This document shows positions 25,133-26,611 of a stretch of 64,000 nt of DNA, piece by piece. The position numbers were made by a program, and so were the translations under genes. Below the pieces are notes generated by a model. That model was not told where the DNA came from. It did no database searches and worked only from the letters and a program-made list of their open reading frames with translations. This stretch comes from Bacilli bacterium (lineage in GTDB: Bacteria; Bacillota_I; Bacilli_A; RFN20; CAG-826): assembly GCA_022653695.1 (NCBI GenBank), contig JALCSW010000002.1, positions 214,605 through 278,604 of the forward strand, read 5' to 3'. Within the stretch, counting starts at the first letter, position 1, and every line of letters begins with the position of its first letter.

Positions 25133-26482
25133 TTATAGCACAGCGGCAAAGGCCAACGGCAAATACACGATTCCGTCGTCGACTTTAATGTCCGAATTGC
25201 AAAGGATGTAACGCTCATCGATTTGCCTTTTGTAAACGGAGGAAACATAGCGCAACGAGGCGGCTTTGTTGCTTCTGCCACTCTTGATTTCGTAAAGGTC
25301 GAACTTAGCGCCTTTGGGGCAAACGAAATCGACCTCGTATCTCGTTCGATTAGGAAAAGTCTTCTCGTAGAAATACATGGATCGGTGATTAACGGACAGC
25401 ATTTGGCAAGCCAGGTTCTCCATCATCATCCCCTCGTTGGATGACAGTTTTCCCAAAACGATGGACTTATAAAGCGGGTTCTTAAGGAAATCGTCTTCCC
25501 CCACCGCCATCGACAGAAGCAAACCGGTGTCCGCCATATAGCATTTAACCCTGGAGCTGTCGAAATTAAAGCCAACAAGAGCATCAAGGGACTCAAGACG
25601 GTAGACGAGTCGCGCCATCTTCGATTCCGAAAGCCAAAACAGCGTATCCTCGAACTGGTCGGAGCGATCAACGTTTTCCCCCAAAGACGAGAAAACGACT
25701 TTCTTGTCATGATGGGAAAGCATTGCCGGTATGGAATCGAACACCGCGCGAGCGCGAGCGACATAGCCCTGCGCGAATTTGGCGATATCATTACGGTAAA
25801 GACCCAGAATTTGCCGTTTTTTGCCTTCGCAAGGAAGGAAACTTTTCGTTTTGACGTACTCGCTGACGGACTGAGGCATCCCACCGACCACCATGTAGGT
25901 ACGAACCTGGCGGTTGATCGTCGTCAAAAGGGATCCTAACGGCTCCAAACTCTTCAACCGTCTGCGAAGAAAAGGAACGGTCGTCCGATTGCCGAGCGCC
26001 CAACAGAACTCCTCAAAATCCATCGGATGCATCTCTAGGCTTTTTTCCTCGCTTGGGATGAGAATCCCATTAACGTTTTGACGCAAAGAAACGAGGCTTC
26101 CGGTCTCTATATAGTCATAACGATGATCACGAACCAACGATTTTATCTTTTCGCGGGCTTTCGGAAAAAACTGCACCTCATCGAAAACGATAAGCGAATC
26201 CCTCTTGTAAAGCGGAATCGAATAATAAACGGAAACGGCATCGAAGAAACCGTCTAAATTGTCTTGGTTTTCCTCAAAAAGCCGAACGACGCCAGGATCG
26301 GTTGAGAAATTGATGATGATATGACTTTTATAGAAGCGCTTCCCGAACTCATCGGCAATGGTTGTTTTGCCGATTCGGCGGGCCCCTTCAATCAAAAGGG
26401 CCGAAGTTCCGTCATCGGTTTTTTTCCAGTCAATGAGTTTTTCGGTAATTTTCCGTTCGAACATGATTTCATCGCTTGCCAC
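25133..26482 (-). CDS. AAA_14/DUF4143 ATPase with C-terminal PD-(D/E)XK-like motif
   Basis: Walker A EGARRIGKTTIADEF, IVFDEVQFFPKAREKIKSLV, MHPMDFEEFCWA, C-terminal RYEVDFVCPKGAKFDLYEIKSGR. GTG start at 26482 with AGGAGG upstream. Confidence 0.92.
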   Translation of the reverse strand: MASDEIMFERKITEKLIDWKKTDDGTSALLIEGARRIGKTTIADEFGKRFYKSHIIINFSTDPGVVRLFEENQDNLDGFFDAVSVYYSIPLYKRDSLIVFDEVQFFPKAREKIKSLVRDHRYDYIETGSLVSLRQNVNGILIPSEEKSLEMHPMDFEEFCWALGNRTTVPFLRRRLKSLEPLGSLLTTINRQVRTYMVVGGMPQSVSEYVKTKSFLPCEGKKRQILGLYRNDIAKFAQGYVARARAVFDSIPAMLSHHDKKVVFSSLGENVDRSDQFEDTLFWLSESKMARLVYRLESLDALVGFNFDSSRVKCYMADTGLLLSMAVGEDDFLKNPLYKSIVLGKLSSNEGMMMENLACQMLSVNHRSMYFYEKTFPNRTRYEVDFVCPKGAKFDLYEIKSGRSNKAASLRYVSSVYKRQIDERYILCNSDIKVDDGIVYLPLAFAAVL

Positions 26483-26529
26483 GTTCCCGCCTTCCTCCTA
26501 TCGTTTTCATGCACTTATTTTAATACTTT

Positions 26530-26611
26530 TCCCGTAACTCGCAACGCTTTTTACACCAAATATCCCGTAACTCGCAACATTATAAATGCCAGAATTCCCG
26601 TAACTCGCAAC
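26530..26611. repeat. Three perfect 16-bp direct repeats TCCCGTAACTCGCAAC at exact 33-bp period
   Basis: Copies start at 26530, 26563 and 26596; 17-bp spacers differ in sequence. Lies in the promoter region of the DUF4143 gene. Confidence 0.97.

What the first reader, a model, noticed from the sequence alone, without database searches (positions are those of the whole stretch)
25133..26611. First DUF4143 ATPase gene independently carries a different repeat in the same exact 33-bp register
TCCCGTAACTCGCAAC is perfectly repeated at 26530, 26563 and 26596 (33/33), upstream of a minus-strand DUF4143 gene. The repeat differs from that of the second locus, but period, position and gene family match. 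Both repeats begin TTCCC/TCCC and end GCAAC/GCAAAC. As in the other array, alternate copies share extra bases (copies 1 and 3 both extend to GCAACGCTT). Two unrelated sequences in the same register beside the same gene family argue for a conserved architecture rather than chance.
Basis: partly seen in the sequence, partly recalled or inferred. Interest (0 to 1): 0.88.

Follow-up and report, generated by a model that had tools for sequence, protein, structure and literature searches.

The report
Nuclease-ATPase genes with private promoter repeats
A very common but uncharacterised bacterial gene family, suspected of fighting phages, usually carries its own private set of short DNA repeats over its promoter, spaced by almost exactly 33 (or, in a sister group, 23) base pairs, which suggests that each protein recognises and controls only itself.

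Summary
TCCCGTAACTCGCAAC occurs exactly at 26530, 26563 and 26596, and nowhere else in the 1.29-Mb genome (at most 2 mismatches). In the 64-kb window only two places hold three exact equally spaced copies (11 nt or more, any lag 16-120). Both have lag 33 and both lie upstream of AAA_14-DUF4143 genes. All five intact DUF4143 genes of this genome have arrays: four at 32-33 bp, one (another subfamily) at 23 bp.

Of 303 DUF4143 genes (at least 9 phyla, plus viral contigs), 176 show a 32-34-bp register or a multiple, and 25 a 23-bp register. The register follows the protein tree; the repeat sequence diverges fast. The motif (AAAATCTtGAWWWcGTGtAA, or its flipped form TTGCG) overlies core promoters. 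The protein is a P-loop ATPase with a winged helix and intact PD-(D/E)XK motifs (PADLOC PDC-S01, an unvalidated phage-defence candidate).

Best explanation: a self-specific operator array by which each ATPase-nuclease represses its own promoter. Binding is not shown; base-by-residue covariation was inconclusive. Two clean insertions at tRNA 3' ends show that gene plus array can move as one unit of about 1.8 kb.

The parts
25133..26482 (-). AAA_14-DUF4143 ATPase/PD-(D/E)XK protein gene (449 aa, GTG start), PADLOC PDC-S01
   Evidence: Pfam AAA_14 1.8e-20, DUF4143 3.7e-17; PDC-S01 1.7e-90; the sister species has ATG at the same start position
26596..26611 (-). repeat copy 1 (most distal from the gene); coding strand GTTGCGAGTTACGGGA
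   Evidence: exact match
26563..26578 (-). repeat copy 2
   Evidence: exact match
26530..26545 (-). repeat copy 3; contains the putative -35 hexamer TTGCGA (26544-26539)
26517..26544 (-). sigma-70-like promoter TTGCGA-16-TAAAAT overlapping repeat copy 3
   Evidence: consensus scan, 9/12, 1 found vs 0.2 in shuffles; prediction only
54657..55991 (+). second AAA_14-DUF4143 gene (444 aa), PDC-S01
54508..54625 (+). its own 33-bp-register array (three full copies of about TTCCCTTGAAAAAGGTGCAAAC and a fourth, partial copy running into TATTAT)

Best explanation
The repeats are an array of operators for the protein encoded next to them. Each AAA_14-DUF4143 protein (P-loop ATPase, winged helix, PD-(D/E)XK nuclease domain) binds its own repeats, one subunit or dimer per repeat on nearly the same face of the helix, as an ordered ATPase oligomer, and thereby represses its own promoter. 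The oligomer geometry of the subfamily fixes the register (33-34 bp in one clade, 23 bp in another, a difference of about one helical turn), while the base sequence drifts with the recognition surface, so that paralogues in one cell do not cross-regulate. Repression is presumably relieved by a trigger such as phage infection, releasing an ATP-dependent nuclease. Shown here: arrays, register, sequence divergence between paralogues, promoter overlap, occurrence only at the own gene, conserved ATPase and nuclease motifs. Inferred: binding, repression, oligomer, trigger, defence role.
For: Motif found without spacing information: adjacent sites at 33 bp (107), 34 (25) and 32 (9), all in the same orientation; flipped class 34/26/2. 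On 220 upstreams, 318 of 532 adjacent pairs are at 32-34 bp, against 2 of 60 (Markov) and 1 of 57 (736 flank tiles). Sites are private: the window gene's repeat occurs only at its own promoter, the second gene's only there plus three isolated 2-mismatch hits. In Bacteroidota 18 of 19 upstreams contain the -7 box TAnnTTTG (3.0 expected), which in 7 starts right after the GTG of a repeat; in the window a predicted -35 lies in the last repeat; in one clade the last repeat covers the Shine-Dalgarno. The register follows the protein clade: 33 versus 23 needs 3 changes on the tree, and 0 of 500 shuffles cluster as well. Confident AlphaFold model with elements that fit a winged helix at about 241-316 and a nuclease core (pLDDT 88); Walker A/B and the E/ExD/ExK residues invariant. 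In the sister species the array lost exactly two units (66 bp) and the gene is frameshifted.
Against: No binding or repression data exist. Residue-by-base covariation is only weakly enriched in the winged helix (18 of 60 top pairs, 10.9 expected; circular-shift about 0.09). 33 bp is 3.14 turns, so faces rotate slightly. 84 of 303 DUF4143 genes, many of them in one subfamily, show no array. The sister-species coincidence is a single case, and frameshifts in assembled metagenomes can be artefacts.
Confidence: 0.66

Rival explanations
1. The array is chiefly a self-recognition or assembly site rather than an operator: it holds the ATPase-nuclease in an inactive oligomer on its own gene (a DNA-encoded antidote), so that loss of gene plus array, or titration by incoming DNA, frees a toxic nuclease.
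For: Array private to each gene, no partner gene, intact nuclease motif; gene plus array present or absent as one unit; array contraction together with gene decay.
Against: Arrays lie over core promoters, which operator function explains more simply; no toxicity data.
Confidence: 0.15
2. Gene plus array is a mobile element and the repeats are recombination or integration sites used by the protein, or by an integrase in trans.
For: Two recent insertions of about 1.7-1.8 kb containing only array plus gene at tRNA-Met and tRNA-Ala 3' ends, with duplicated tRNA ends (16 nt and 9 nt) and intact empty sites in the sister species; homologues on plasmids and viral contigs.
Against: tRNA adjacency is rare (3 of 178 loci); the array repeats are not at the element ends and do not match the duplicated tRNA sequence; arrays overlap promoters.
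Confidence: 0.08
3. Iterons of an origin: an Orc1/Cdc6-like AAA+ initiator with repeats beside its own gene, from integrated replicons.
For: Weak fold matches to Orc1-DNA and ORC chains; AAA+ protein with repeats in cis.
Against: Same or better matches to STAND/NLR ATPases; chromosomal single-gene units of 1.8 kb; nuclease domain; promoter overlap.
Confidence: 0.04
4. The repeats belong to an unrelated host regulator or are passive slippage repeats.
For: Alternate copies share spacers and a 66-bp unit was deleted, so recombination shapes the arrays.
Against: Same register in many phyla with different sequences, tied to one gene family and nearly absent at other genes.
Confidence: 0.05

Closest known systems
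PADLOC PDC-S01 (phage-defence candidate; ATPase fused to PD-(D/E)XK, described as the fourth most common defence across all prokaryotes, PMC12988326)
   Same: Both window proteins match its models over full length; so do the 23-bp and the no-array subfamilies
   Different: The PDC-S01 passages read in two papers do not mention promoter arrays, and the full-text searches run here returned no paper describing any; antiviral function is unvalidated
RptR and its three direct repeats in a defence-island promoter (PMC12255303)
   Same: Promoter-overlapping direct repeats upstream of a defence locus; full repression needs two or more repeats
   Different: RptR is a separate 9-kDa repressor with 9-bp repeats of one conserved palindrome; here the putative effector is itself the candidate binder, the register is 33 or 23 bp and the sequence is paralogue-specific
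Autoregulated toxin-antitoxin and R-M controller operators (from general knowledge)
   Same: Self-specific operators beside the regulated gene
   Different: No antitoxin or C-protein gene; one ATPase-nuclease gene only; long fixed spacing
Iteron/initiator systems such as Orc1/Cdc6 with ORB repeats (from general knowledge)
   Same: AAA+ protein with repeats next to its gene
   Different: Nuclease domain, promoter overlap, chromosomal, no replicon functions seen

Membership tests
PDC-S01 (PADLOC candidate) | Full-length match to PADLOC PDC-S01 models | tested here: met
   E 1.7e-90 (profile 1-429/439) and 4.7e-135
PDC-S01 (PADLOC candidate) | P-loop ATPase fused to PD-(D/E)XK with catalytic residues | tested here: met
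   Walker A/B residues, E355, D385, E398, K400 invariant in 80 sequences
PDC-S01 (PADLOC candidate) | Antiviral activity | not testable with these tools
   needs phage challenge; validation pending for most PDCs according to PMC12988326
Autoregulatory operator array | Repeats overlap the core promoter of the gene | tested here: met
   by prediction: Bacteroidota -7 box in 18 of 19, 7 abutting a repeat; window -35 in last repeat
Autoregulatory operator array | Sites specific to own gene | tested here: met
   16-mer unique to own promoter in 1.29 Mb; second gene nearly so
Autoregulatory operator array | Encoded protein binds the repeats and represses | not testable with these tools
   winged-helix-like region predicted; covariation inconclusive
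CRISPR-like array | Match to a CRISPR repeat family and longer repeats with Cas genes | tested here: not met
   only a sub-threshold Rfam hit inside the gene, E 0.53; repeats of 16 nt
Integrative element at tRNA | Duplicated tRNA 3' end and intact empty site | tested here: inconclusive
   met for L003 (16 nt) and L319 (9 nt), but only 3 of 178 loci lie near an upstream tRNA; no integrase gene in the inserts

The most novel reading that the evidence does not exclude
A widespread class of self-contained single-gene modules in which an ATP-dependent nuclease recognises its own private promoter array both as operator and as a self tag that keeps the nuclease inactive (a DNA-encoded antidote). Array sequence and protein would co-evolve so that dozens of paralogues coexist in one cell, with the register set by an oligomer whose step differs between clades by one helical turn.
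Probability: 0.25. Interest if true: 0.92.

Novelty: new variant of a known kind. Interest (0 to 1): 0.8.

Why it matters
PDC-S01/DUF4143 proteins are reported among the commonest candidate defence genes in prokaryotes, yet what they do is unknown. A family-wide cis array with a fixed register gives an immediate, gene-specific handle: a predicted DNA target for most members, a test of function (binding, repression, release by phage), a simple way to sort the family into mechanistic subfamilies (33-bp, 23-bp, none) and, if confirmed, a natural set of many orthogonal operator-regulator pairs.

Tried and rejected
Chance: rejected. CRISPR or other known RNA: no Rfam hit above threshold. Global regulator: rejected for this gene, no other sites in the genome. 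tRNA insertion as a general rule: rejected, 3 of 178 loci. Empty site for a third insertion (L337 vs G032): only about 200 bp of flank matched, uninformative. Residue-by-base covariation for the recognition domain: not significant. PDB relatives by sequence: none meaningful; by fold: generic AAA+/STAND/ORC, TM at most 0.39 by query length in the listed hits. Literature: 'DUF4143' occurs in one paper of the held PMC library, which was not opened; searches for COG1373 (7 papers, titles and abstracts only) and for combined terms returned nothing about the repeats.

Full report
What is there. The window gene at 25133-26482 (minus strand) encodes a 449-aa protein with Pfam AAA_14 and DUF4143 domains. 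Upstream of it, at 26530, 26563 and 26596, are three exact copies of TCCCGTAACTCGCAAC (coding strand GTTGCGAGTTACGGGA), 33 bp apart. The start codon is probably GTG 26482; the sister species has ATG at the same position. The second DUF4143 gene (54657-55991, plus strand) has TTCCCTTGAAAAAGGTGCAAAC repeats, also at 33 bp.

It is not chance. Scanning all lags from 16 to 120, the 64-kb window holds only two exact triple repeats of at least 11 nt. Both have lag 33 and both precede DUF4143 genes; Markov-shuffled windows reached at most 7 nt, and the expected number of 16-nt triples is about 7e-13. Of 57 ORF upstreams in the window only these two score. The 16-mer, allowing two mismatches, occurs nowhere else in the 1.29-Mb genome. 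The second gene's 17-mer occurs only in its array plus three isolated two-mismatch sites.

The other paralogues in the genome. There are five intact DUF4143 genes and one broken one. L003 has CTCGCTCCGAAAAATGTA-type repeats at 33 bp; L004 has TTCGAAAAGTGCAACA at 32 bp. L002, of another subfamily, was seen first as a lag of 69; laid out in steps of 23 it shows four degenerate copies beginning CAAATGTG or CATAAAT.

Family-wide test. In 80 loci from titled genome records the best upstream self-match lag was 33 in 44 and 34 in 12 at a strong score, and a multiple in several more. An EM motif search that used no spacing information found AAAATCTtGAWWWcGTGtAAAA, with neighbouring sites at 33 bp (107), 34 (25) and 32 (9), all in the same orientation. 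Genes without that motif gave TTGCG(C/T)aTT, again at 33/34 bp; reverse-complemented, its conserved positions line up with the first motif, so it looks like the same element in flipped orientation (inference). On 220 upstreams, 318 of 532 adjacent pairs were at 32-34 bp, against 2 of 60 in Markov controls and 1 of 57 in 736 flank tiles. Positive loci span Bacillota, Bacteroidota, Actinomycetota, Spirochaetota, Pseudomonadota, Fusobacteriota, Kiritimatiellota, Lentisphaerota, Chloroflexota and a Mycoplasmatota record; many are metagenome-assembled, but cultured strains are among them. In viral contigs the best lag was 32-34 in 19 of 22, and 8 of 9 plasmid or phage-clone examples show an array.

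A second register. Members of a roughly 417-430-aa subfamily carry arrays at exactly 23 bp (20 genes at lag 23, a few more at 22, 45 or 46), for example CGCCAAATnnCCGAA and TTGCAAAnCACATA. On a tree of 303 proteins the register follows the clade: with only the 33- and 23-bp genes labelled, three changes suffice, and 0 of 500 shuffles cluster as well. A third subfamily (L008-L025 type) has no visible array. 33 minus 23 is about one helical turn, which fits a fixed helix face with a different protein step; that is inference.

Repeat sequence drifts quickly. Same-orientation gene pairs at 60-70% protein identity differ at about half of ten core positions; above 90% at 4%. A 56%-identical homologue (L043) keeps the 33-bp register with an unrelated-looking repeat. 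The arrays inspected in one genome with 42 DUF4143 hits all differ from each other.

The protein. Walker A, Walker B and the PD-(D/E)XK residues (E355, D385, E398, K400) are invariant in 80 relatives. AlphaFold gives a confident model (pLDDT 88, pTM 0.89), with helices and strands at about 241-316 that fit a winged helix, and a nuclease core. The 23-bp subfamily is modelled with the same order of elements. Foldseek finds only generic AAA+/STAND/ORC similarity. PADLOC names both window proteins PDC-S01. One paper calls this the fourth most common defence across all prokaryotes; validation is pending for most such candidates (PMC12988326).

Position relative to the promoter. In Bacteroidota, 18 of 19 upstreams contain the -7 box TAnnTTTG (3.0 expected), which in seven starts directly after the GTG of a repeat. 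In the window a sigma-70-like promoter TTGCGA-16-TAAAAT has its -35 in the last repeat. In one clade the last repeat covers the Shine-Dalgarno, 3-4 bp from ATG. This, with private sites and a DNA-binding fold, is why autorepression is the leading mechanism. Binding and repression are not shown.

Natural experiments. In the sister species G015 the second locus is 98.9% identical including the array. The ortholog of the finding has lost exactly 66 bp (two repeat units) of its array, and the gene is frameshifted. Array and gene seem to decay together, though this is one case and frameshifts in assembled metagenomes can be errors. Copies 1 and 3 share spacer bases and the deletion was two units, so the arrays may grow and shrink in 66-bp steps.

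Mobility. L003 (present only in G000) is a 1.83-kb insert holding only array and gene, exactly at the 3' end of a tRNA-Met gene, with CCCCCCTCAGCCACCA duplicated and the empty site intact in G015. L319 (present only in G015) is a 1.73-kb insert at tRNA-Ala with TCCACCAAA duplicated and the empty site in G000. This is not the general rule: only 3 of 178 loci have a tRNA within 500 bp upstream.

Covariation. The winged helix was mildly enriched among top associations (18 vs 10.9; circular-shift about 0.09; residues 257-300 about 0.045). This is suggestive only.

Verdict. Closest precedent: RptR repressing a defence island through three direct repeats (PMC12255303), but there the repressor is a separate small protein.

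Noticed in passing
L003:511-2354 and L323: 1.83-kb insertion (array plus DUF4143 gene, no integrase) at the 3' end of tRNA-Met with a 16-bp duplicated tRNA end; empty site in the sister species
   Followed up: yes
L319 (reverse strand, about 520-2245) and L329: 1.73-kb DUF4143 insertion at the 3' end of tRNA-Ala(GGC) with a 9-bp direct repeat; empty site in G000
   Followed up: yes
L335, L338, L340, L343 and most of L348-L365: A second DUF4143 subfamily with arrays in a 23-bp register
   Followed up: yes
genome G014 (L011, L071-L099): 42 DUF4143 hits in a 1.9-Mb genome: extreme paralogue expansion
   Followed up: partly
L373, L374, L377: Plasmid-borne homologues whose 32-bp-spaced repeats are dyads (TTTTATGCGCATAAAA; ATGTGAGTATAATCACAT), suggesting that the two orientation classes are halves of one dyad
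   Followed up: partly
window 26670-28088: ROK-family domain fused to a NUDIX domain in one 472-aa protein; within the genus a near-identical full-length relative was found only in the sister species G015
   Followed up: partly
window 26529-26615 and 54508-54625: Alternate repeat copies share spacer bases (in the second array lag 66 outscores lag 33), and the sister-species deletion is exactly 66 bp: arrays seem to change in two-unit steps
   Followed up: partly
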